Assembly (NCBI RefSeq): GCF_022201045.2
Contig: NC_068557.1
Span: forward strand, 29,923,501 to 29,987,500
From: Citrus sinensis
Lineage: Eukaryota > Streptophyta > Magnoliopsida > Sapindales > Rutaceae
DNA length: 64,000 nucleotides
Reading direction: 5' to 3'
In this document: piece by piece, positions 17,152 through 52,316 of the stretch
How the letters are laid out: each line of letters starts with the position of its first letter
Numbering within the stretch: position 1 is the stretch's first letter
Notes under the pieces: model-generated
Told to the model about the DNA's origin: nothing
The model's database searches: none
What the model saw: the letters and a program-made list of their open reading frames with translations, nothing else
Program-made: the position numbers and the translations under genes

Positions 17152-20100
17152 ATGGCTTGTGGAGCTCTGTCATTGACCATTCCTTTGTGGTCACATTTAA
17201 CCTCCAAATTTGATTCTAAAAGAGAACGAGCCTTTAAACATCAACCTACGACACTCGGAATTGCATGTTCAAATTCGAGTCCGGACTTGCCTGCTACAAC
17301 TGGTAACTGCTTCTTATTTCATTTTTTTTTTTATTTTCTGGAATTATGTAGAATGAAACCTTCTTGGATGCGGGTGATGAATTGGTTACAAACGGAAAGT
17401 TTATTTTTGTGTGTACAAAATTTGAATTTGGAAGTGGAATTAAGCCCACGATGGGTTTAGATTTGTGAGTATATCTGTTATGTGTGATTAGATAAGATGT
17501 CTTTTTGGGAAAAATTACAAGAACCCATCTGAAAATTTTCATTTGGGAGGATTTGACTTGGATTATGCATTAGAAATTGCAGCAAAGGGGTGAACCGTGA
17601 ATGTGAGGGTCTGTTTGTGAACTTTATGGGCCTTTATGACATAATTGGCTGTCATATGTTGTATTTTGTGGTGAATTATATACAATATAGAGTATTTTGG
17701 TTTAAGCCAGTTAATACTCTTCCTTTTGACTATTCTACTTTTTCTTATGATAATTAATGGCCTGCCAAACTTTTGAAATAATTATAGCTATCTTTGCTTG
17801 TTTGCTTACTCTAAAATGGAATGTGTTGTTAAACCAAATGATCATCTATCAGTGTCTGACATTTACAAATCTATTAATGTATGTCATTTGCTATCTTCAG
17901 ATACAATTTTATGTCCTGAAACCTTTATATGGGTAGTTATAGTTGGCTTGTGCTACAATGGGTGATTTTACATTCTCAGTTAGAAATGTGGACTAGAGGT
18001 CTTAAGGTTGCTGTTGAGGTAAACTAACTTCTAACCCATCACTGATGGTACATTCCAAGGAATATCCATTGGCTGGCTACACTCTGCCTAAGGTGAATTG
18101 CCTTTCCATTTTGAGAAACAGATGCATAGATTCTTCACTTTATAGTCCTTTTCTTTATCTATAAATAATAACATTTGGAGAAAGAAATGTTTCGGATGGA
18201 ATGCAATTTATTTATTTTTTTGAGGGAGGGGAGGAATGAGTTTTTAGAGATCTGTTGATAGGGAGTATTAATGAGAAGTTGCCGTATCTGCCTTGAAACC
18301 TGTACTCAAGAATCTCTCTAACCCCTCTGTGTGGATGTGTGTGTGCATATGTGAATGCTTATCAATAGAGTCAACATAATTTTGTGAAGTTCAACAAGTT
18401 CTTGCGCATTGTTATCCCTACATGAAGTTGGTTCTAATAATTTGTTGGTGACAGAGAAACTTCAGAATGATGCTTCTGTGACTGGTGGTGCATATGATTT
18501 TGGAAGAGCAACAAAATCTCTTACTCAGAAGTTGATATCATATCCAAAGAAAGTCACTCTTGTAAGGCATGGTCTTAGCTCTTGGAATGACGAGGGTAGA
18601 GTTCAGGTTTGTCACCTTCTTTTTATTATAACCCAAATTTTTTATTATGTCTCTGCTTGGCAGAGGCAATTACAATTTTGTGACATGGGATGTGTCATGT
18701 GTGAATTTAATGTCAAGCTTTTCTCTCAGTGTTCAGTGCATTTGTTTACTATTTATGAACACGGGATTCATATCTATTTCTTCTCTATGTTTCGTAGAAT
18801 TATACAAGTTTTCATATGCTAACTTGATCTGTTATATCTGCAGGGAAGCTCAAACTTGTCTGTGCTAACAGAAGCTGGAGTGAGGCAAGCGGAAAGGTGT
18901 CGTAAAGCCTTAAGAAATATATACTTTGATCAGTGCTTCTCAAGTCCAATATGTCGTGCTAAGGTATAGATTCTATAGAATATAGATACCACTGTTCAGC
19001 CTGCAATGGTTCAATTATTGTTTTATTAATGGGTGTTTAATGCAGTCTACTGCTGAAATTTTATGGCAAGGAAGGGATGAGCCACTGGCTTTCATCGATT
19101 CACTGAAGGAGGCCCATCTGTTTTTCCTTGAGGGCATGAAAAATGGTCTGTCTCTTGTTTATTTTTATTTGTTAAAAAAGTTAATTCAAACTCTTTAATT
19201 AAATTTACTTGATACAGTGTTGCATCACATATACAATGATATGCATATTAAAGTTTTAGTATGACTATGGATGATGTGCCTATTTCTCATGAAGGTTATC
19301 ATGTTTTCATTCTATATATTGTATATTTACTAGCTGGCTTGGAACTTGGTTGCGTTAGTTAGTTGAACTTCAAATCATTCTTTTGACATACATTGCATTT
19401 AGCTCTGTATCCATTTCACTAAATCGCATTCAGAATTTGGAGGCAGTGGATGCTAGGCAGAAATATCCAAACGAGTATACAACATGGAGAGAAGATCCAG
19501 CTAATTTTAATGTAAATGGTGTTTACCCTGTTAGAAATCTATGGGGAACAGCTAGGGAGGCTTGGAAGGAGATCCTGTTGACACCTGTATGATCTGTTCC
19601 TTGCTATATTTACATCTCTTGTTTTCAAATATATTTGTTTGATATGTTCTTTCTAATTCATCAGGGAGAGAATTTTTTGGTTGTCACTCACAAATCAATT
19701 TTAAGGGCACTGATCTGTACTGCTTTAGGGCTAGGCCCAGAAAGGTACGTAATTGCCCATCAAAATTTTCTTCATTAATCAACAAGCGATCCTGGGTGAT
19801 TCTTGCATAATACTTAATTTTGATTCTTACTCTGATTTCCTTTGAAAAATTTTCTAGTTGAAGAAAGATTTCTTGTTGCATCTAGAAAGTTCATAAGATT
19901 TATGATTGTAAGCTATGTGATATTTCACTTGATATATGTAATCTAACATAAAGAGGAAGTTTGTACTATGGCCCTTCTCTGTGTGCTGAGCTATTGTCAC
20001 TGGCTTATTTGTATATAGTGAATCACCTTCTCGGTTTATGGTTACAATTATCTGAAATGGTTTTAGCTCATAATTGGCATTTGCTTGCTAAGATAATTGT

Positions 20101-26700: not shown

Positions 26701-29105
26701 CAAAAAAGGCAAGGGATCTCCGTCTTTGGGCATCATACAGAGGTCAAACTTTATCCCGTACCGTGAGGGGGATGATGTATTACTATAGGGCTCTCAAGAT
26801 GTTTGCTTTTCTTGATTCTGCATCAGAGATGGACATAAGGATGGGATCGCAAGAACTAGCTTCTCATGGTTCATTGAGTCGTAACAGCTATTCGGATGGT
26901 CCTGGCCCAGCATCTTCAAAGACGCTTCCTAGCGCAGAAAGTGGTGTTCGTCTTTTGTTCAAGGGGCATGAGTGTGGGAGTGCTCTGATGAAATTCACAT
27001 ATGTGGTTACTTGCCAGGTGTATGGGCAGCAGAAGGCAAAGGGAGACTCTCGTGCAGAAGAGATTTTATATTTGTTGAAAAACAATGAGGCCCTTCGAGT
27101 TGCCTATGTCGATGAGGTTCACTTGGGGAGGGATGAGGTTGAGTATTACTCTGTTCTTGTGAAGTATGATCAGCAGATTCAGAGGGAGGTGGAAATCTAT
27201 AGGATTAGGCTGCCTGGTCCATTGAAGCTTGGGGAAGGAAAACCAGAAAACCAAAACCATGCCATAATTTTTACTCGGGGTGATGCAGTTCAAACCATTG
27301 ACATGAACCAAGACAATTATTTTGAGGAGGCACTCAAGATGCGCAATTTGTTGGAGGAATTCAATAATTATTACGGAATTAGAAAGCCGACTATATTGGG
27401 AGTCCGAGAGAATATCTTTTCAGGTTCTGTGTCCTCTCTTGCTTCATTCATGTCTGCCCAGGAAACCAGTTTTGTGACCCTTGGGCAGCGTGTTCTAGCA
27501 AACCCTTTGAAGGTACGGATGCACTATGGTCATCCTGATGTGTTTGACAGATTCTGGTTCTTGCCTCGTGGTGGAATTAGCAAGGCTTCTAAAGTAATTA
27601 ATATCAGTGAGGATATATTTGCTGGTTTCAATTGTACTCTGCGAGGTGGTAATGTAACACACCACGAATATATACAGGTGGCCAAGGGAAAGGATGTTGG
27701 GTTAAATCAGGTCTCCATATTTGAGGCCAAGGTTGCTAGTGGAAATGGTGAGCAGGCATTGAGCAGAGATGTGTACCGCTTGGGTCACAGATTAGACTTC
27801 TTCCGGATGCTCTCCTTTTTCTACACGAGTTTGGGGCACTACTTCAACTCATTGATGGTCATCATAACTGTTTATACATTTTTATGGGGGCGTCTTTATC
27901 TTGCTCTTAGTGGGGTTGAGAAGGCTGTCAAGAATAGTACTAACAATAAGGCTCTGAGTACACTTCTGAATCAGCAGTTTCTTGTCCAGTTTGGTCTGTT
28001 CACTGCTCTTCCAATGATTGTGGAGAACTCACTTGAGCATGGGTTCCTCCCTGCAGTTTGGGACTTCTTAACAATGCAACTTCAGCTAGCATCGTTATTT
28101 TATACATTCTCTTTGGGAACTCGTGCTCATTTCTTTGGTCGGACTATTCTTCATGGGGGTGCCAAGTACAGAGCCACTGGGCGTGGATTTGTGGTTCAGC
28201 ATAAGAGCTTTTCAGAGAATTATAGACTGTATTCTCGGAGCCATTTTGTGAAGGCAATTGAACTCGGAGTTATTTTGATTGTGTATGCTTTCCACAGTCC
28301 CATGGCCGAGGATACTTTTGTTTATATAGCAATGTCAATCACGAGCTGGTTCCTTGTGGTTTCATGGATAATGTCTCCCTTCGTGTTCAACCCTTCTGGA
28401 TTTGACTGGCTGAAGACTGTCTATGACTTCGATGATTTTATTGATTGGATATGGTTCCGTGGGGTGTTTACAAAAGCAGATCAGAGCTGGGAAACATGGT
28501 GGTACGAGGAACAGGACCATCTACGGACGACCGGTCTTTGGGGAAAGCTATTGGAGATTATCTTGGATCTTCGTTTCTTCTTCTTTCAGTATGGCATTGT
28601 ATATCAGCTCGGAATAGCCGGCGGAAGCACCAGTATAGTTGTTTATTTGCTATCTTGGATAGTCATGGTTGTGGTGGTTGCAATTTACATCACCATAGCA
28701 TATGCTCAAAACAAATATGCTGCAAAAGATCACATCTACTATCGGCTAGTGCAACTGCTAGTCATTGTGCTAGTAGTACTAGTGATTGTCTTATTGTTGG
28801 AGTTCACTAAGTTCGACTTCTTTGATCTTGTGACAAGTCTCTTGGCATTCATCCCCACAGGATGGGGCATGATATTGATTGCCCAAGTTCTTAGACCTTT
28901 TCTGCAGTCCACTTTGGTCTGGGATACCGTGGTTTCCTTGGCTCGGTTGTACGAGTTACTGTTTGGAGTAATTGTTATGGCCCCGATGGCTTTGCTTTCG
29001 TGGTTGCCCGGATTTCAGTCAATGCAGACAAGGATCCTGTTTAATCAAGCATTCAGTAGGGGTCTACAGATCTCTCGTATTCTTACTGGGAAAAAGTCCA
29101 ACTGA
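23790..29105 (+). CDS. CALS12: Callose synthase 12-like (glucan synthase-like 5 / PMR4)
   Basis: This is the catalytic subunit of a plasma-membrane 1,3-beta-glucan (callose) synthase using UDP-glucose. The CALS12/GSL5 type makes callose in wound and pathogen-induced papillae. It is one uninterrupted exon of 1771 aa; Arabidopsis CALS12 is about 1780 aa. The start at 23790 gives MNLRQRQYPTRGG, like the family, followed by IIPIHDLLAEHPSLRYPEVR. The FKS1 domain covers about residues 200-350 (LLIWGESANLRFAPECICY). A first cluster of membrane helices lies at about 330-600. The large cytosolic glucan synthase region contains GFNCTLRGGNVTHHEYIQVAKG and KYRATGRGFVVQH. A second helix cluster extends to the C-terminus, which ends in TGKKSN. 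No frame damage is present. CALS11 is the nearest alternative. Confidence 0.93.
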   Translation: MNLRQRQYPTRGGDGLHAPPAPPPMPVIYNIIPIHDLLAEHPSLRYPEVRAAAAALRDVTDLRKPPFVAWGSHMDLLDWLGIFFGFQNDNVRNQREHLVLHLANAQMRLQPPPASPGVLETSVLRRFRRKLLRNYASWCSFLGRKSQISVSSRRDQKSLRRELLYVSLYLLIWGESANLRFAPECICYIYHHMAMELNYVLDDKIDENTGRPFLPSNSGDCAFLKCVVMPIYQTIKTEVESSRNGTAPHSAWRNYDDINEYFWSNRCFKSLKWPIDYGSNFFVTVSKGKRVGKTGFVEQRTFWNIFRSFDKLWVMLILFLQAAAIVAWTPTDYPWQALDSRDIQVELLTVFITWGGLRFLQSLLDAGTQYSLVSRETMFLGVRMVLKSVVASTWTVVFGVLYGRIWSQKNADGRWSYEANQRIIAFLKAVLVFIMPELLSIVLFVLPWIRNWIEELDWPIVYMLTWWFHSRIFVGRALREGLVNNFKYTVFWILVLLSKFSFSYFLQIKPLVAPTKALLNMKKVDYNWHEFFGSTNRVSVVLLWFPVILIYLMDLQIWYSIFSSIVGAVIGLFSHLGEIRNIGQLRLRFQFFASAMQFNLMPEEQLLSPKATLVKKLRDAIRRLKLRYGLGLAYNKIESSQVEATRFALLWNEIMLTFREEDLISDRELELLELQPNCWDIRVIRWPCILLCNELLLALSQATELADAPDRWLWLKICKNEYTRCAVIEAYDSIKYLLLAVVKYGTEENAIVTTFFTEIENYMQIGKFTEAYRMTVLPKMHANLISLVELMMKPEKDLSKAVNILQALYELSVREFPRVKRSISQLRQEGLAPRSSATDEGLLFENAVKFPGAEDAFFYRQLRRLHTILSSRDSMHNVPVNIEARRRIAFFGNSLFMNMPRAPYVEKMLAFSVLTPYYDEEVVFSKEMLRKENEDGVSILFYLQKIYADEWNNFMERMRREGMEDDDDIWSKKARDLRLWASYRGQTLSRTVRGMMYYYRALKMFAFLDSASEMDIRMGSQELASHGSLSRNSYSDGPGPASSKTLPSAESGVRLLFKGHECGSALMKFTYVVTCQVYGQQKAKGDSRAEEILYLLKNNEALRVAYVDEVHLGRDEVEYYSVLVKYDQQIQREVEIYRIRLPGPLKLGEGKPENQNHAIIFTRGDAVQTIDMNQDNYFEEALKMRNLLEEFNNYYGIRKPTILGVRENIFSGSVSSLASFMSAQETSFVTLGQRVLANPLKVRMHYGHPDVFDRFWFLPRGGISKASKVINISEDIFAGFNCTLRGGNVTHHEYIQVAKGKDVGLNQVSIFEAKVASGNGEQALSRDVYRLGHRLDFFRMLSFFYTSLGHYFNSLMVIITVYTFLWGRLYLALSGVEKAVKNSTNNKALSTLLNQQFLVQFGLFTALPMIVENSLEHGFLPAVWDFLTMQLQLASLFYTFSLGTRAHFFGRTILHGGAKYRATGRGFVVQHKSFSENYRLYSRSHFVKAIELGVILIVYAFHSPMAEDTFVYIAMSITSWFLVVSWIMSPFVFNPSGFDWLKTVYDFDDFIDWIWFRGVFTKADQSWETWWYEEQDHLRTTGLWGKLLEIILDLRFFFFQYGIVYQLGIAGGSTSIVVYLLSWIVMVVVVAIYITIAYAQNKYAAKDHIYYRLVQLLVIVLVVLVIVLLLEFTKFDFFDLVTSLLAFIPTGWGMILIAQVLRPFLQSTLVWDTVVSLARLYELLFGVIVMAPMALLSWLPGFQSMQTRILFNQAFSRGLQISRILTGKKSN

Positions 29106-41307: not shown

Positions 41308-44265
41308 TTAAGTATAAATATTTTTGTCAACAGGTTCTCCTTGTAATTCCACATTGCTAACTACAGGAATTTTTTCATAAGCAACAATCTCTCTAAACCT
41401 CCTGGGAAGAATACACCGACCACCATTTTGTTGCTGCAAATAAATAAGAGCAGCAAACAGCAGACCACCACAGGGTATGATAATGTCCCAAGCTGTGGAG
41501 TAAAAATCCATCTTGGGATTTGCATAAATGTAAGACCAATCAGGGTACCAACTGGAAGTATTAGCCCTGTAAAGATCATAAGCATGAGGCAACAGTCGAA
41601 CAACGGTTGTTCCAATGTAGAAAGGAGCAGCCATGGTCTTTTCTGTTGAGTTGTTGAACATGTTGAACAGAATCTGTGGGAGCAAAAAACCATCAAGAAT
41701 CAACCCACCATAGGATTTGAGATCAGCCCAAAGAGAATGCTGCCAGTTTAAGCGCACCCGGCGAGGGTGGAGAGGTTGTATATGACGATGTACAATATAT
41801 GGACCATGGTAAGAATTCCTCGATCGATACACAACCCAAGCACTCAACCCACCAGCAATATACAATGGTAAAGTTGCATATAGAACTTTCCTCTCGGAAA
41901 TCCATGTTTCATTTTGACTTCCATTGCCTTGTCTAGCAGACCAAGTAAGTTGGAGAAGGCGGAACTGCAGAAGGAAAGCTACCATTGTTACCATCCTTAC
42001 AATTATTTCATTTGCTTCGAGCCATCCACCACTACCAAGAAAAAGATTCTGCTGGTTATGATTGGCCTTGAATAAGGCCTCAAAGTTCAACAGCAAAGGA
42101 ATCATGTACCCGAGAGTAAGAATGATGAGCATCACAACAGATATGAAAGGAAGCACACCAGGGTGCTTCTTAACATAGAAGAGCTGCAAGCCAACAAAGA
42201 AACATGCAACTGTATTCAATATAAGAGCCATAGTAATCTCTAAATCCATTCTCCAAACAGATTCCTTAGCTTGGCTTGTGTAAATTGAACTGGAAAACAA
42301 TTCGAGACGTCCAAAATAAAGAGAGTCTGACTTCTGCCGTGTGCTTTCAATTGTTCCCTTGACATTTTCACTGTCCTCTTCGTTCAATGCACGAAACTGG
42401 AAATTGACATCAATCTCACAATCCAGAGAATCATTTTTTGCCAATTTCATTTGTTGATGACTTGGCCTCAAATTGCGACACCCTCTCATGCACAAGACAC
42501 CTGTATCCCTATCATACACTCCTTCAGCTGAAATTTCTATTGCTTCAGATATCTCACTACCACCAAACATGAAACCAGATGGAGGCACGATACTCATCTT
42601 GTAGCTAATGTTCTGCATATTGTGCTGGTTATTTGGCTTAAAAGCAAACACAGTATACCTCTGCAATGGCGGCAAATGCAAGTGTCCAGACAGCGGGTGC
42701 TGATATAAGTGATCACCCACAAACAGCGGAGAAGCAAAACCATGGGATATTTGTCCGTTGCTATTTTTTACATACATACTAAACCTCATGTCCACAGAAT
42801 TCACATCGGGGTACGTCTTTCCCTTGTGTTTAACATTATTCTTAATTGCACAAGATTTCCTAGCAACATCTACCAGAGTGTACCGGTACTTGAAACCGGA
42901 GAGACCCATTAATACTTCCTGAGAACTTTGAAACCCAATTTTATCAAAATATCCCGGATCATGCTCACTTTTGTTGCTCCAAATTTGCCCTAAAATTGTA
43001 CTCCTATTTCTAACAGAGAAAACTGTAGGAAATCTCAAATTAAACCTAACCGAGCAATCTCCAACGTAAGCATTAGTTATAATTTGAGTGAAATTCAAGA
43101 TTCGGCATGCGACGCCATGCAGCTGGTTCTTCTCGTCATCCCATACACCTTCAGCAATCAACGTGGTCTTAGGGTCAAAAGGAAATGTTGCACGAATAAT
43201 GCTGGAGTTCAGAAACCCCAGTAACATCACCATTTTTTGTTTCTCAACACACCTAATCTTTCTTAAAAGCAGAGCACTTGGTAAATAATCAACGTTCTCT
43301 GTAACAGGACTGCAACTAACATTTCCACCACTATAACACGCACTATTAAAAGCCAATTCAAACTTAAAATTACCAAAACCAAACACCGAACACACACCTT
43401 GATCAGCATCACTCACAGACAAACTCTTGTCTCTATCAAGTCCATCCTCAAAATCACTTTCATTTCCTTTATCTATCAATGTAAACTCATAAGACCTCTC
43501 CTCAAGCTTAGCCACACCTAATATCGAGACCGGCTTAAAGTAACTCTCACTACCTTCAAAATCCAAACTTTCCAAAACCCCACTAACCAAGCTATCAAAA
43601 ACACTCAAATTGAATTTTCTAGAATAATTAAGCTTCAAAACCACATTAAGATTATTGGATTTACCTGAATTTATACGATTGGATCCTGATCCAACCATAC
43701 AAAGCTTCCCATCAGCTTCGGACCAGAAACCACTTAGCCAAAAGCTCGCCGATCCACGCCGCAACGGAATCCTCGGCCCTCGAAATTTAACCATCCGTAA
43801 TCTACGGAACCTTATATTAGCGTCATCTTTGGGGGAGATCATAAGACTCAATCGTGCTTCGAGTTTGAACACGGTACTGTTAACTGTTTTACCGTCAATG
43901 TGGGGGACAAAAGCGACGGAATTCGGCCAGATGGTCTGATGAGAAATGAAAAGGGGGTCGCCGCCGGCGAAAAACGCGGTGGTGAAGCGAAGGGATGAAG
44001 GGGAGGCAGGGAAGTTGGTTCGGTCGAGAAGTGGTTCGGGGACTATGTGGTTGCAGTGTTTGGAGTATTGGATTTGTGAGTTTACGGTGGTGGGATTTGG
44101 AATGTAAGATTCGCAAAATGTCGTGAGGAGGGAGAAGGACATGCCCAAAAGGAGGAGGAGGCTGCGGCGCTGGCGCTGGCGCTGGCGCTGGAAATGATTC
44201 GATCGCCATTTTGGGGTTTTTGGAGGGTTTATCTGGGAAAGTTGAGGAACGGAAATTATCTCCAT
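41308..44265 (-). CDS. DUF2921 membrane protein
   Basis: This is a single-exon, 985-aa plant protein of the DUF2921 family, whose role is not firmly known. Residues about 33-50 form a hydrophobic signal-like segment (RSLLLLLGMSFSLLTTFCESY). A large, probably lumenal or extracellular region follows with two similar halves, each with YFD/EG-type beta-rich segments and several paired cysteines. From about residue 690 onward there are six or more hydrophobic helices, such as ALILNTVACFFVGLQLFYV, FISVVMLIILTLGYMIPLLL and IIIPCGGLLFAALIYL. The C-terminus is cytosolic-like and basic, with RCILPRRFREIVAYEKIP. A 6-bp repeat at the N-terminus encodes an Arg-Gln run at residues 27-34. The start used is the first ATG; one inside the signal-like segment is an alternative. 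From memory, Arabidopsis At4g21700 and At1g52780 are relatives. Confidence 0.86.
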   Translation of the reverse strand: MEIISVPQLSQINPPKTPKWRSNHFQRQRQRQRRSLLLLLGMSFSLLTTFCESYIPNPTTVNSQIQYSKHCNHIVPEPLLDRTNFPASPSSLRFTTAFFAGGDPLFISHQTIWPNSVAFVPHIDGKTVNSTVFKLEARLSLMISPKDDANIRFRRLRMVKFRGPRIPLRRGSASFWLSGFWSEADGKLCMVGSGSNRINSGKSNNLNVVLKLNYSRKFNLSVFDSLVSGVLESLDFEGSESYFKPVSILGVAKLEERSYEFTLIDKGNESDFEDGLDRDKSLSVSDADQGVCSVFGFGNFKFELAFNSACYSGGNVSCSPVTENVDYLPSALLLRKIRCVEKQKMVMLLGFLNSSIIRATFPFDPKTTLIAEGVWDDEKNQLHGVACRILNFTQIITNAYVGDCSVRFNLRFPTVFSVRNRSTILGQIWSNKSEHDPGYFDKIGFQSSQEVLMGLSGFKYRYTLVDVARKSCAIKNNVKHKGKTYPDVNSVDMRFSMYVKNSNGQISHGFASPLFVGDHLYQHPLSGHLHLPPLQRYTVFAFKPNNQHNMQNISYKMSIVPPSGFMFGGSEISEAIEISAEGVYDRDTGVLCMRGCRNLRPSHQQMKLAKNDSLDCEIDVNFQFRALNEEDSENVKGTIESTRQKSDSLYFGRLELFSSSIYTSQAKESVWRMDLEITMALILNTVACFFVGLQLFYVKKHPGVLPFISVVMLIILTLGYMIPLLLNFEALFKANHNQQNLFLGSGGWLEANEIIVRMVTMVAFLLQFRLLQLTWSARQGNGSQNETWISERKVLYATLPLYIAGGLSAWVVYRSRNSYHGPYIVHRHIQPLHPRRVRLNWQHSLWADLKSYGGLILDGFLLPQILFNMFNNSTEKTMAAPFYIGTTVVRLLPHAYDLYRANTSSWYPDWSYIYANPKMDFYSTAWDIIIPCGGLLFAALIYLQQQNGGRCILPRRFREIVAYEKIPVVSNVELQGEPVDKNIYT

Positions 44266-45797
44266 CGGTGATGGTATCGCCCCTTACCCCCCCGATACTA
44301 ACGGAGATGGGTGTAACAGAAGCTGAACGAATCAACTCATCTGCAAGAATTTTAGATTTGTATATTTATTTTTATATTTATAGGTGGCTTGGTAAAAAAT
44401 GCTTTTTCGAGAAGCACTTATTACCAAGAAATGTCCATGCTTAATTTTTTTTTTATTTTTTTAAAGAATATACATAGTTTCATATGATTTATCTCCTTTT
44501 TTTTTTCGATTAAAACCATAATTATCTTTTGAGTGAAAATGGAAACGTAAAAGTTTGCTTTGGGTAATTGGGTGTGAGCAAGACAATAATGTGATCGTAT
44601 GTCAGAATCATGCCTCGTGTGCAGCGCAGAAAATGAAAGGCAATAAATAACCTCATACTCCAAAAGGAAATAAAGGGGGGGGCGGGGGAACATTAAATAA
44701 TACACCTCTTAATTACAATATTCTACAAATGCAGGAAGGTTGTTTGTCGGTCGCATAATAATAAGAACAGCGTATCAATTAATTTACTTTCATATATATA
44801 GCCATTAGCCGGCTCCTTTTTTTAAGTTATTGAAAAGTGCTGTAGCTGCCCATCTGGCGATGGTAAAACGTGTGTTTAACATGTTTTTTCGGGTTAAGAC
44901 TTTTTTTTCTTTTTTCTTTTTTTTATCCGGCCAAAAAAAACTTTGAATTTTATCATTTTAATTTTTTTTATTTTGCTTTATAAATTTTATGGCTTGTAAA
45001 TTATTATTTTTTTGTTAGTTTAGGATTCAGAAGTTGGATTCAAAAGATTTAAAACTTTAAATACATATCATAAGTGGGTTAAATACATGTTAAAATATGT
45101 ATTTTTAATTAAAATAATATTTTTTTTATATAAAAAAAAAAATTAATCAGTTCTCGAGCTTTCGGACCAGACTGTGGCTTCATCTGAATATGCTCGGATT
45201 GGGCCAAACCTTTCCCAAAAAACACCTGGTCTCAAGTCTGGCCGAGTTTTTCTGCTATCCTGAAGCCTACGCCCTGGTCTAAGTAATCTTGAGTTACGTG
45301 CTCTGTGTTGCAGCTTTAACAGTGGCTGGTTTCACATTATCCTCACTTGGTGGCGTCAATGAAAGCCTGTTTTAGTCAAACTCATGGATGAAAATGAAAT
45401 TATATTAGTAATTTTGAGCGGCGACATTGAACTTGCGGCTCCTTTCCAAAGCTTTTCTATGGCTGCATTGTCCTTGCCTCTGGAATTTTAAATTTTAAAG
45501 TAACTATCACAGAGAGATCATCCAGCTGCATAAGGCATCATTGTTACAAAGATCTTAAGGCACACCACTGCGACCATTGTTTCTTCATTATTGTACATTG
45601 TGATACACCATATATTACAGCAGCAAACGCTTATTCAACCAATCTTATAATACAAATTCAACGCCCATGTAAACAGAGCACAGAAGAAACACAAGCATAT
45701 TTTGTTATTTTACATTTTAATTCACACGATAGGAATGTGTTCATAAGGTAAATGCGAGTTCTTTTAATTATTTGAACCCGTGAAGGGCATTCATTTT
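44266..45797. other. Spacer between the DUF2921 and PHO2 genes
   Basis: At the left it holds the DUF2921 promoter; at the right, about 250-300 bases are probably PHO2 3' UTR. Poly-T and poly-A runs are common between 44890 and 45140. No gene was recognised. Confidence 0.5.
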
Positions 45798-48700
45798 TCA
45801 GTTTTCAGGCTCAATAAATTGGTTGCAATCGATTCCCTTACTAGAAAAGGCCTCCACAAGCTTTGGAAATAACTTAGCAAGCATGATTTTGAAGCCCACT
45901 GAACATCCGTTGGAATTTTCTCCATTTTCTTTGCATCCAGAGGCAGTTCCTACTGCAGCTCCTTCCATGTATGCCTTACAAGCCAATAAAATGTATTTGC
46001 AGCGTTGACTGAAGTGCTCCTCCACAAGCTCCTTAAAATGCTACATAAAAAAAAAATAAAAAAATTCAACCATTACTAAGAATTTCTATATTCCAGATAA
46101 ACACACTTGGTGGTTTTAAATGGCATCTATTTCTGTCAATTGAGAATTCCACTATTTCTCTGATTTTCAATTGCACAGATGTAATGCTTGCAATATGCTT
46201 TAGATCAAAGACTAGTGATCATCTTATTCTCATTATTTCAATGAGAGATCGACAGTAAACAGCATAGCAACTTTACTGACACGGTAAAACCAAATTCCAA
46301 ATTTAAGACATTACCTTGGGTGGCTTGTGAAGTAGGTAAAGCATGGACTTGCAAGTCACAAGGAATGCATTTTCATTGTAGCTTACTGAGTTTTTCTCTC
46401 CCTCAGCTCTTCCTATCTGCTTATCATATCCAGCCTCGTTGAAATAAGGTTTCTCATTAAGCACAAGAGCTTGGAGGGAGAGAAGAACTTGAAGAATCGT
46501 GGAGCCCCCTGGATTCCATACTTCAGTGCCTGAACCCGTCCAAGTATTGAGGAGGCTGAGACAGACCTTTCCGGACTCATACAAGTTAGGGTTCACACGG
46601 AGTCCACCAGAAATATAGTGTACTAACTGCACAAAAATAATTTTGTTCAGGCAAAATAATTATTTAATGAATACATTCGTAAAGATGTTTGCATAGACAA
46701 ATATTTACAAAGTGCTCGGAAACTCATATAAGCAGCATCCTTTATTGCATAGAAAACGATAATGATTGAAATGGCAATATAGTCTTTGCACTACCAAAGT
46801 TGGGGCTACACAAGACAGCAGTGATTTATTCAAGCGTGAACTCAGTAACAAGTAAAGCAAAATTATATACGAAAACTTACAGGCGGCTCATGAGGATACT
46901 CTGGAGGAAGAAAGATGTCAAAGAAGAACAGCCCGTCGTGATAGGGAGTTCCCTTTGCACCAACAATGGCTGCCCGTATGAGATCCACCCTATCCTCGAA
47001 GATGCGGACATAGATTGTTTCTGTCCCGGTTATCACACTCTTATAAGAAATTGAAAGAATAAAAATTTGACAGCTTTAACATTGATATTGGAAATTCCAG
47101 TTTTATGTGCTAACAGTTCACATATGTAAATAACATAGCTGCAGAAACTTTTTTTTTTCTCCCTACTTAAAATGTTTTCCTTTGTACTAGTTCTACTTTA
47201 ACAGCAGAAATCTTCTGTTTTTACCTTTGACAGTTAATCACTTTTTTGACATTTTTGAGATATAGAACTAACTGCATAATAATCACCGCCATATGGAAAA
47301 AAATAAAAACAGAAGTAATATATTGGAGTAAAGGTCCCTGATCAATCTTCTTCCCTAGAAGAATAACCTTTCTTTTCCTTTTCTTAACACTTCTTTTTCC
47401 CCCGCTCAAGTTTCCGTATCTTTCAGTAGAAAAAGAGCATTTGTTATCACAAGATAGGGTTTACCAGTGTAGCAGCTGATACCATCTAATACATTTGCTA
47501 GTCCAATTTTTGCAAGTTACAACTAATAGAAATGGAATAATACTGGAATAAGTACACTGAAGCAGCATACAGAAAATATAATAGTACTAACCAGGAAGGG
47601 ATTTCTCTAGAATGCTCCATTCTTGCTGAACCTTCTTCACCCAAGCTCTTTTCACCTGTCGGGAAAAAAATGGAGAGAGGAAAAGAAAAAGGATTATCCA
47701 GATTGTTTGATGGTATCAACCAGTATATTTGCAGAGATAAATGAAAGATGTCTCTAACCTGAGACAGTGCTAACCCCTTGCTGGCACCAAGAAAATGGTG
47801 GTCTGAAGAATCGCTAACCATATCAAACTGCCGAAACTGATCTTCTGAATTCTCACAAGCTGTAAAAGCTTTAAATTCTTCTTTCTCTGGGTCCTCTTCA
47901 ACTTCTTGAATTAAATTTGTCTTTCCACGTGTCTGCAACTCACTAGGATGGGGCTCACAGCAGATATTTTTAGCTTCAAATACTTCTTTCTCAAGCAGAA
48001 TCTCAGTCTCATTCGCATCTTCAGGTATATGACCAGATGACACTGAGTCTGACTGCGATGTGGAACCAAGGGGTCCAAATAGGCTTGTCACAATGCTAGT
48101 GAAAAATCCAATGGCAGCACAGGCAAGAGAAAAGGAACTTGACTCCCATGGGTACTTTTTGCAGCCTTCACCAGAACCATCAAAACTTGGCAAATTCTGA
48201 GCAGACAGAACAGCTATCCAGTGATTAAGAGATAATCTAAAATAACACAAGCTTAAGCTGGGTTGAAAACAAAATTCAAATTCAGCGAATTTTAAGTGTC
48301 TATAACAATAGAAAAGGAGCGAGGGAGAAATTACCTCTCCTCCATGGCTTGAATATTGTTTGCCATGCAGTTCTCGATTCAATTCCTCGATATTACCTTC
48401 ATTTGTCCCAGGGGTTGTAGCTGAACCTTCATATTTTTCAACCCCATAAATTTCATTAGGTCCAACCTGTAACAATGCCCAAGTATAAATTTAAAGATGC
48501 TGAACCTAAGTGATACTAATTAATCATGAATACTCAATCAATAAGAAACTGGTATATTAAGTGCTGAGTTGGATGAATGATGTAAAAGTTTTGCTGTTTT
48601 AACCAGCATTGCAGCCATGATACAAGCTCATTGTGTCCACGCGAAAACCATCAAATTTAAGCATGCATTACCATTTTGCTGACAAGAAATCCTTTCTGAA

Positions 48701-50299
48701 ATACACATTCAGAAGGATAATTCAGTTAAAAATTCCTAGCTACTAACCATGAAGCTGAACTGTACGCTACAGTGGCCCATGATTACCAGCACAACCTTTA
48801 TCGGAAAGTGTCAGTGAAAAATTCATGCATTGAAAAGTATACTCAATGCAAAACATAGAATATAGCCAAGATTAATCAAACAGTAAGGATGACTAAATTT
48901 CACATACCTTGGTTGTAAAACCAGTAGCCCATCTCACCTCCACAGCACCATCTTTAAAGCCAGTAACAATGCCAATGCAAGATGAATAATGTGTATCAGG
49001 GCAATCATTCTGTTCCCAATCAGAGATCGTGCCTTCCAAAGCAGCATCTTTACACATGCCAAACTGGTTCTGGACCAACTTAAACACTACATCCCCATAA
49101 CAGTAGGAGTAGTCTGGGTGCTCAACCAGTTCATAAGCACTTACCTCAGACTGATTTGCATCAGAATCACTATTGGCCTTCGCCCTCCATTGGACTGTTA
49201 CAGTCCTTTCCTTTGCGTCCACACCCTGCACAACCCCCCATCTTTGTCCGCTAGGTATATGTGGATCATCGGAAATGCCCTTTTCCAGCACAAACTGATC
49301 AGGCCAAAATTCATGAGAATTTACAACATTAACGGGGAGCAGAGCCTGAGAATCCAAACCCACAGAGCAGCTACCATCTTGCCACACAACATCAAATTTG
49401 GTCTTTGTTTTCACGATAACAAAAACCTCTGCTAAACTTGAACCAGGGTTTCTTCTCCTAAGTCCTCTTTCCAATTTCTTGTTATCACAAGTAGATGAAT
49501 TGATAAAAGTTGGCTCCGTGATAACCTTGTCGTCAGCAGTTGGAAGCATGCACCAGTCACCTAGCTGCCAGTTAGCATGGGAAAAACCTGACAACAAAGT
49601 CAAGTTTTTTGAGTCTTGTAGACGTGGTGGAGCAGCTAAATTCAGATCAGAACCCATTAGGGCAGATGCAAGCCAATCAACATACACCAAACCTGCATCT
49701 ACTTTGCAAACGGTTCCCTCAACTTGATTTTCCCTCCCAGTACCACATAACCATGAAACCGATTTAACAGTTGAGAGCCTAACCTTTACTCTCTGTCCTG
49801 GATAATACGGATACTGAGAATCTTCAAGCAAGCTGGGAGAAATAGGTAAGAGCTTCTCATGATCTACAGCAGTGACTTCATACTTGGACCCATCATCTAA
49901 AACTATATTCACAGAGTCAATTACTTTATCAACCCTGCCAAGCCATGCACCAAGAACCACAAAATCCCCCACTGAGATGGAGCGGATCTTTAAAATATTT
50001 TTGGAATTTACATCTTTTATGATGTATCCGGGAATGCCCTCCAAGTCCACGAGCATGTTAATATTAATCACTCTGCCCATTTGTCCAGATGGATCTGTTA
50101 CAGAGCGCACAATGTCCCCATGCGTAAATCCCCGGTCAAATGAGAGGAAGTCATCAATTTTTCCAATGCTCTCCTCCAGGCTTGATAAAATGCTTGTAGC
50201 CTGCCCCCCATACAGAAAGTCATTTTCCTCATGCCCCTCACTGCTACCACTCTCACTAAAACTTTCCCAATCAGAGTCACTGAAGAGCGCATCCATCAT
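45798..50299 (-). CDS. PHO2: PHO2 / UBC24, E2 ubiquitin-conjugating enzyme of phosphate homeostasis
   Basis: PHO2 is a large E2/E3-like enzyme of the endomembranes that marks phosphate transporters (PHT1) and PHO1 for degradation. Seven coding exons close in phase: 50299-48908, 48466-48335, 48196-47759, 47655-47592, 47020-46881, 46626-46315 and 46040-45798, giving 906 aa; Arabidopsis PHO2 is 907. The N-terminus reads MMDALFSDSDWESFSESGSS, then SLEESIGKIDDFLSFDRGF. Several SH3-like modules follow in exon 1. The block FRQFDMVSDSSDHHFLGASKGL precedes the catalytic domain. The UBC domain spans about residues 620-830, with TPYHDGLFFFDIFLPPEYP, and the catalytic Cys lies in ESGKVCLSLLNTW. A 5' UTR intron fits 50308-50681. 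Five miR399 sites in the leader indicate repression under phosphate starvation. Confidence 0.96.
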
Positions 50300-50911
50300 T
50301 TAAATGCCTAACAAAAGAGATTTACAAAAATCTTTAAGTTACCATCAATACCACAAGTGTAAAGAAGACAAATACGGTAGCAAGACAACTTCAAATTGCA
50401 TTGTCCATCAGGCAAAAGTTCTCACCTTCGTCACAGAAACAATGATATAAATTTATCTTTTCTAGTACTGAATTTGCTCAAATACTTTGGTAATCTTCAC
50501 AGAGTACTATAACAGTTCACCAGGGAAAAAAGTGAAGCAGTTATAAACACAAACAGAAGCAGTTATAAACCACATTTCACTTCACTGGAGCAAATTTGAG
50601 CTACTTAGGGTTTGCCAGAACTTCTTTTGGCACAGAAAACACAAAAGAACTGTATAAAAGAGTAGAGATGAAGAGAGGTACCGTCAACTTTGAGTCCTGT
50701 TGAAAAAATCGAATTCTCCAACGGTATGCTAGTTAAAATCTTAATGATTGCAATGCAGGTCTGTCATCAGTTGTCAATTCCAAAAGTTGATACAAGTGTA
50801 AAGCTGTGGTTATCGGTATGACTCTTTGTAAAGGATCTTTAATTACAGATCTTCCAATTTATAAGTCCAAATCTCCAAAAGGATATATTGACTCGAAAAC
50901 TGGAGATCTAT

Positions 50912-50932
50912 TGCCAAAGGAGATTTGCCCCA
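50912..50932 (-). promoter_or_regulatory. miR399 target site 1 (nearest the PHO2 start codon)
   Basis: The plus strand reads GCCAAAGGAGATTTGCCC after a T, the miR399 sequence itself, so the minus-strand PHO2 leader carries its complement. The last bases (CA) differ from miR399 isoforms. Confidence 0.9.
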
Positions 50933-50997
50933 ACAGGGAACTGGAGTCAACTAAAGACTCCTCACAACAATAATAGGAGCCAACAAAGGACTCCAAA

Positions 50998-51018
50998 TGC
51001 CAAAGGAGATTTGCCCAA
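50998..51018 (-). promoter_or_regulatory. miR399 target site 2
   Basis: Same 18-base core as site 1 on the plus strand, followed by AA, so pairing with the 3' end of the microRNA is weaker there. Confidence 0.9.
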
Positions 51019-51136
51019 TGAACAGACTAAAGTTTCCACTGGGTGAAACTTTGAACATGTACTCCCAACAGCAGAAGTAACAAATTGGTACAACTGCCAG
51101 ATGAGATTGTTCCTACAGGTTGTTGGACAACCTGAA

Positions 51137-51157
51137 TGCCAAAGGAGATCTGCCCTG
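51137..51157 (-). promoter_or_regulatory. miR399 target site 3, best match
   Basis: The plus strand reads GCCAAAGGAGATCTGCCCTG after a T. It differs from miR399a at one central position and keeps the 3' CTG, so it pairs along the whole 21 bases apart from one mismatch near positions 12-14. Confidence 0.92.
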
Positions 51158-51269
51158 CAGTGGTGTTTGGAGTTCCAAACAAAATGATAGATTTCCAACA
51201 ACCAATGGACTCTTCCAAAATCAACCACTGCAAAGGTAAGTATCCAACAAAGGAAACTTACAAAATTTT

Positions 51270-51290
51270 TGCCAAAGGAGATTTGCCCAA
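51270..51290 (-). promoter_or_regulatory. miR399 target site 4
   Basis: Core GCCAAAGGAGATTTGCCC on the plus strand, ending AA like site 2. Confidence 0.9.
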
Positions 51291-51345
51291 CAGTGGAATG
51301 TTACAGGTTTTAAAAATTTGCTCCTTAGAGAAACCAAATTTTTAT

Positions 51346-51366
51346 TGCCAAAGGAGATTTGCCCCA
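51346..51366 (-). promoter_or_regulatory. miR399 target site 5 (most 5' in the transcript)
   Basis: Core GCCAAAGGAGATTTGCCC on the plus strand, ending CA like site 1. All five sites lie within 455 bases of leader. Confidence 0.9.
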
Positions 51367-52316
51367 AACTGAAACTAGAATTCTATCAGTTCAACCAAGA
51401 TTCATCACATCTTAGCTGCCCAACAAAGACAACTAATAAGCACCATTTCTAGCAGCTTGTTTCAAACAATCTCGGTCATTGTATCATATAATTCTTCAAA
51501 GAGAGTTATTCTAAAAACTGCTTTTCTTTCCCCAAAAGTCAATTGAGCTCCTTTGACCTGTGCAATATCTCAACCTGCACCAAAAATAACATCTTAATAT
51601 TGTTCAGAGACTTTTCAATATCAACAGATTTAGAAAGTGAAAAATATGAGAATTTTAATTTGAAAAAAGGAACAGCAGCCTCTCTTCTGAAAGTCATATT
51701 CTTATTAAAACAAGCAATTACTTTCACATCTAAAACTTATTTTGTAGATTTTCCTGCAGATGAAAAAAGGCACCAAACATAAATTCAATCTTCACAAAAG
51801 AAAAAATTATGAATTTTCTATTAGGAATTTGACAAATCATTACTATTATATAAGTAGCCTCCGGAGGACAACTAAATAAAACTTGAATTTTCTTAAAGTT
51901 CATTCTAGCAAACATATTAAATTCAAGTAGAAAGGCATCATAACTATGAGCAACCAAATTGGAAGCGTGTTAAATTTTTGTCCGTAATTGAAATTTCTGA
52001 TTAAAACATTGTGAGAGACCAGAATTATACAGTACAACAAAGATTCAAAGTACATTCTTTATCTATTTCTGTTGGAACTTTCACATACAACTTCAATTTC
52101 AAAGAATTTCAACAACCTCAAAAGCTTAAACACCAAACTTATGCTTCCTAACAAAACTCAAAACCCACCAAAAGTTAACAAAGAGTTACTCCAATTATTG
52201 CAGGCCACAATAAACAGTCATAAAAGATTATCAAAACAAAACAAAACAAAACAAAAAATGAAAGAAAGCTAACACAATAATTAGACAAATATTCACCGGC
52301 TCCACTAATTACATTA

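What the first reader, a model, noticed from the sequence alone, without database searches (positions are those of the whole stretch)
50912..51366. Five miR399 target sites in the PHO2 leader
Five copies of the 18-base miR399 core, one with a single base change, lie within 455 bases upstream of PHO2, on the strand that makes its transcript carry the complements. The number equals that known for Arabidopsis PHO2. Four sites end in non-matching 3' bases, while site 3 keeps the full 3' match but has a central change. The sites may thus differ in strength, with site 3 dependent on tolerance of a mismatch near the cleavage position.
Basis: partly seen in the sequence, partly recalled or inferred. 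Interest (0 to 1): 0.7.

Follow-up and report, generated by a model that had tools for sequence, protein, structure and literature searches.

The report
miR399 target sites in PHO2 leader
The five microRNA-binding sites are really there, in front of a plant's phosphate-control gene PHO2, and they are the ordinary, well-known arrangement by which phosphate-starved plants shut that gene down.

Summary
Five near-identical miR399 complements start at 50912, 50998, 51137, 51270 and 51346, on the strand that puts them in the leader of a PHO2/UBC24-type gene (7 coding exons, 906 aa). They are far beyond chance. Among scored candidates in the 300-Mb genome, 12 places match the 19-base motif with at most one mismatch: these five and seven that fold as MIR399-type hairpins. 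An IPS1/At4-like target-mimic sequence is also present. Five leader sites are already published for Arabidopsis, rice, Medicago, poplar, bean and barley (passages). Against the genome's own isoforms every site scores 1.0 to 1.5 with the best one; site 3 is best of five with the CCCUG isoforms and worst with the CCCUA isoform. Two isoforms equal those printed for Mexican lime, so the plant is probably a citrus. Transcription and cleavage here were not testable. Ordinary; already known.

The parts
   Evidence: cut position inferred
   Evidence: cut position inferred
   Evidence: cut position inferred
   Evidence: cut position inferred
   Evidence: cut position inferred
50426..51574 (-). proposed leader exon holding all five sites
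   Evidence: acceptor-like motif before 51574 and donor-like motif after 50426; boundaries inferred, no transcript data
50951..51058 (-). upstream ORF of 35 codons overlapping the 50998 site, the longest of 8 ATG-started ORFs in the proposed leader
   Evidence: use unknown
45798..50299 (-). PHO2/UBC24 coding region, 7 exons, 906 aa
   Evidence: exon joining by splice motifs; Pfam UQ_con on exons 5 and 6, UBE2O tSH3-B and SH3-B on exon 1, above cut-offs

Best explanation
This is the canonical miR399 target array of a PHO2/UBC24 gene, probably in a Citrus species. In phosphate starvation miR399 accumulates, pairs with any of the five leader sites and guides AGO1 to cut between the bases opposite miRNA positions 10 and 11; PHO2 mRNA falls and phosphate transporters are spared from degradation. 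An IPS1/At4-like RNA on another chromosome may buffer miR399. Shown here: sites, strand, gene, hairpins with their miR399 strands, mimic sequence. Inferred from other plants: transcription across the leader, cleavage, phosphate response.
For: Five sites against a shuffle mean of 0.14. A 906-aa frame downstream on the right strand with UBC and UBE2O SH3 domains. Of 12 genome places with at most one mismatch, 5 are here and the other 7 fold as hairpins with the miR399 strand on the 3' arm; five Rfam MIR399 hits on the C2 cluster. Best-isoform scores of 1.0 to 1.5 at all five sites. Mimic sequence GGGCAACTTCGATCCTTTGGCA at C6:5678152 with a P1BS-type motif about 390 bases upstream. Same layout, five sites in the second leader exon, in bean (PMC3645745, passages).
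Against: No transcript, small-RNA or degradome data for this plant were available. Leader exon ends are inferred from motifs. The hairpins on C3 and C9 did not reach Rfam's gathering score. Predicted accessibility of the sites is unremarkable (quantiles 0.45 to 0.69 of the leader). The PHO2 name rests on domain layout, the sites and recall of the Arabidopsis protein; no plant protein library was searched.
Confidence: 0.95

Rival explanations
1. The five sites differ markedly in strength by pairing, with site 3 weak because of a central mismatch.
For: Site 3 differs by one base. Site 3 is the worst of the five with the CCCUA isoform, 3.5. Unequal use of sites is published for Arabidopsis, barley and N. 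benthamiana (passages), and a bean genotype with three changes in site 1 shows weaker cleavage there.
Against: The change is at position 14 and is a G:U wobble; site 3 equals sites 1 and 5 with the U13 isoform and is best of five with both CCCUG products. In barley a perfectly matched site gave no product.
Confidence: 0.08
2. The plus-strand copies are MIR399 genes, or a chance repeat, and not target sites.
For: The plus strand carries the miRNA sense of the motif, and the five copies form one direct-repeat family.
Against: No Rfam MIR399 match in the window at gathering score, while the C2 cluster gave five. The inverted-repeat search of 50800-51450 found one 22-base, 73% pair that does not hold a site. 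The copies stand in the expected place upstream of PHO2 on the antisense side.
Confidence: 0.01

Closest known systems
Arabidopsis PHO2 (UBC24) leader with five miR399 sites
   Same: Five sites in the 5' leader of the E2 gene (passages of PMC8516643 and PMC3645745)
   Different: No difference in kind shown; Arabidopsis site sequences were not compared letter by letter here
Common bean PvPHO2
   Same: Five sites in the second of two leader exons, nine exons in all (PMC3645745, passages); here seven coding exons and a proposed leader exon with all five sites
   Different: Bean site 1 varies between genotypes; no such comparison here. The first leader exon was not located here
Barley HvPHO2
   Same: Five predicted sites (PMC3878733, passages)
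   Different: Barley sites 3 and 4 have at least 3 mismatches to every miR399; here all five sites have scores of 1.0 to 1.5 with the best isoform
Mexican lime miR399/UBC24 pair
   Same: Its miR399a and miR399b equal the products of the C3 and C9 hairpins here; UBC24 is listed as predicted cleavage target (PMC10005081, passages)
   Different: The passages seen do not give the number or position of sites

Membership tests
miR399 target array of PHO2 | Several miR399 complements in the transcript sense of the leader | tested here: met
miR399 target array of PHO2 | Good pairing with miR399 made by the same genome, in particular at positions 2-12 | tested here: met
   No mismatch or wobble at positions 2-12 at any of the five sites with any of the products scored
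miR399 target array of PHO2 | Sites lie in a transcribed leader exon | not testable with these tools
   Splice-like motifs at 51574 and 50426 only
miR399 target array of PHO2 | Cleavage opposite positions 10/11 | not testable with these tools
   No degradome data held
PHO2/UBC24 gene | Large E2 with C-terminal UBC domain and N-terminal UBE2O-like SH3 domains | tested here: met
   UQ_con on two exons, tSH3-B and SH3-B above cut-off; SH3-C below cut-off (16.7 against 21)
PHO2/UBC24 gene | Number of PHO2 copies in the genome | not tested
   The protein search did not complete; one search lists no second group of close sites outside the hairpins
MIR399 precursors (RF00445) | Hairpin with miR399 on the 3' arm | tested here: met
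   All 7 loci folded so; Rfam gathering score reached on the C2 cluster (5 hits) and not on C3 and C9
IPS1/At4 target mimic | miR399 complement with a central bulge | tested here: met
   C6:5678152 pairs with a 3-base bulge; transcription not tested; the family motif is recalled

The most novel reading that the evidence does not exclude
The five sites are matched to different isoforms (sites 1, 2, 4, 5 to the U13 products; site 3 relatively best for the CCCUG products), and the 50998 site sits inside a short upstream ORF, so that ribosomes could compete with miR399 there: a leader that reads out isoform mix and translation at once.
Probability: 0.08. Interest if true: 0.3.

Novelty: already known. 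Interest (0 to 1): 0.1.

Why it matters
It shows that the parts of the known phosphate-starvation switch are present in this plant, probably a citrus, where miR399 and UBC24 have been studied in huanglongbing (PMC10005081, passages). The site coordinates and predicted cut ends make a check against existing degradome data easy. It does not change the known picture.

Tried and rejected
Rejected: MIR399 precursors in the window. Rejected: site 3 as a central mismatch. Weak: decayed extra sites at 51095 (score 8.5) and 51245 (score 9.0). In the rest of the window 6 of 127,439 stretches (both strands; only plus-strand starts 50880-51400 left out) score 9 or better, so about 0.05 would be expected among the leader's plus-strand stretches; but the leader's own composition was not controlled for. 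Accessibility of the sites was unremarkable.

Papers: search listings (99 papers, 25 listed; 177, 20 listed; 32, 12 listed; 396, 10 listed; 8, 8 listed). Of these I saw passages only, in nine papers: PMC3645745, PMC10319397, PMC7941915, PMC8516643, PMC3878733, PMC6296076, PMC10005081, PMC4041134 and PMC11062440. PMC7941915 and PMC4041134 added nothing decisive. The uORF passages of PMC11062440 concern other genes, not PHO2; the other seven papers were not opened, so I make no claim that a PHO2 uORF is unpublished. The listing showed nothing evidently on MIR399 genes read on both strands; none of it was opened. Conservation of the leader could not be tested: the genome has no relatives in the collection.

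Full report
Observation. The sequence and a pattern scan show four exact copies and one single-change copy of the miR399 core on the plus strand between 50912 and 51366. In 100 dinucleotide shuffles the mean was 0.14 matches at up to 3 mismatches, the largest 2, and 0 reached the observed 6 (the five plus a poorer match at 18085). Start-to-start spacing is 86, 139, 133 and 76 bases. The repeat search sees the five copies as one family, 62 to 86% alike to the first copy over 37 bases that include the core; copies 1 and 5 are the most alike.

Gene. On the minus strand a seven-exon frame of 906 codons runs from the ATG at 50299 to the stop ending at 45798 (exons joined by splice motifs). Exons 5 and 6 match the ubiquitin-conjugating domain above Pfam's cut-off; exon 1 matches the UBE2O tandem SH3-B and SH3-B domains above cut-off and SH3-C below it. 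The name PHO2/UBC24 rests on this layout, on the sites, and on recall of the Arabidopsis protein. All five sites fall in one stretch between an acceptor-like motif before 51574 and a donor-like motif after 50426. This fits bean, where two exons lie in the leader and the five sites are in the second (PMC3645745, passages). Exon ends here are inferred.

The miRNA side. The window lies on contig C2 of a 299.7-Mb genome of 11 contigs. There, TGCCAAAGGAGANTTGCCC with at most one mismatch is listed at 12 places: the five sites and seven others (counts are lower bounds by the tool's own statement; at up to 3 mismatches 137 against 37 for the reversed control). All seven others fold as hairpins with the miR399 strand on the 3' arm. 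Five of the seven lie within 13 kb on C2, about 1 Mb from PHO2; one is on C3 and one on C9. Two of the five share one almost perfect inverted repeat, read on opposite strands. Rfam's MIR399 model reached its gathering score in five hits on the C2 stretches and in none on C3 and C9. The products are ...UUUGCCCGG (two)...AAUUGCCCUG (three, one of them beginning with C)...GUUGCCCUA (C3) and ...GUUGCCCUG (C9).

Which plant. Contig lengths printed are 26 to 52 Mb for C2, C3, C4, C6, C8 and C9, and 0.6 and 0.1 Mb for C10 and C11, which suggests nine chromosomes; nine for Citrus is recalled. The C3 and C9 products equal miR399a and miR399b printed for Mexican lime in PMC10005081 (passages). Citrus is likely, not proven. 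That paper lists UBC24 as a predicted cleavage target of miR399 and cites earlier work on miR399 and PHO2 in sweet orange.

Site strength. Each site was scored against the products (mismatch 1, G:U 0.5, doubled at positions 2 to 13). With the A13 and G13 products every site has a mismatch at position 13 and scores 2.5 to 4.5. The change of site 3 is at position 14, three positions past position 11, and forms a G:U wobble. With the two CCCUG products (A13 and G13) site 3 is the best of the five (2.5); with the CCCUA product it is the worst (3.5 against 2.5 to 3.0). Its remark on 3' ends holds against a ...CCCUG miR399. Against ...CCCGG, sites 2 and 4 have only G:U at positions 20 and 21, while sites 1, 3 and 5 have a mismatch at 20.

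Rest of the circuit. A search for complements with a variable middle gave 17 places, against 1 for the reversed control. Ten are four of the sites and six hairpin loci without any insert; seven have another middle. One of the seven, C6:5678152, reads GGGCAACTTCGATCCTTTGGCA, the motif I recall from IPS1/At4 target mimics; it pairs with a three-base bulge (-31.5 kcal/mol), and a P1BS-type motif lies about 390 bases upstream. Another, C8:28600139, pairs with a four-base bulge (-29.8). Two, on C2 and C4, lie in near-identical sequence and look like copies of a repeat. P1BS-type motifs also occur in the MIR399 stretches, but no background rate was computed.

Known status. Five leader sites are stated for Arabidopsis, rice, Medicago and poplar (as cited in PMC3645745), bean, the three Medicago PHO2 genes (PMC10319397, passages) and barley (PMC3878733, passages); N. 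benthamiana has four predicted (PMC6296076, passages). Cleavage is site-selective: sites 2 to 5 in Arabidopsis and 2 and 5 in barley, two and four in N. benthamiana. In barley the perfectly matched site 1 gave no product, so pairing alone does not rank sites.

Verdict. Real, known in kind, and ordinary. The added points are the isoform-by-site scores, an upstream ORF over the 50998 site, and possible decayed extra sites, all of modest interest.

Noticed in passing
L010:542-673 (G000:C2:31000542-31000673): One nearly perfect inverted repeat scores as a MIR399 precursor on both strands (64.8 and 62.6 bits), with a miR399 strand on the 3' arm in each direction: a possible sense/antisense MIR399 pair.
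   Followed up: partly
G000:C2:30993553-31006272: Five MIR399 strands within 13 kb, about 1 Mb from PHO2 on the same chromosome.
   Followed up: partly
G000:C6:5678152-5678173 (L025): IPS1/At4-like miR399 target-mimic sequence with a three-base bulge and an upstream P1BS-type motif.
   Followed up: partly
G000:C8:28600139-28600161 (L028): A second interrupted miR399 complement, with a four-base bulge (-29.8 kcal/mol); nature unknown.
   Followed up: no
window 51095-51115 and 51245-51265: Two degenerate miR399-like stretches between the sites (scores 8.5 and 9.0), perhaps decayed further sites, perhaps chance.
   Followed up: partly
window 50951-51058, minus strand: A 35-codon upstream ORF that contains the 50998 site.
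   Followed up: no
window 26761-26840, plus strand: C/D-box snoRNA J33 (Rfam RF00315, 90.5 bits).
   Followed up: no
window 41308-44283, minus strand: A single 991-codon open stretch downstream of PHO2 with hydrophobic stretches in its second half, apparently an intronless membrane-protein gene; no family search was run.
   Followed up: no
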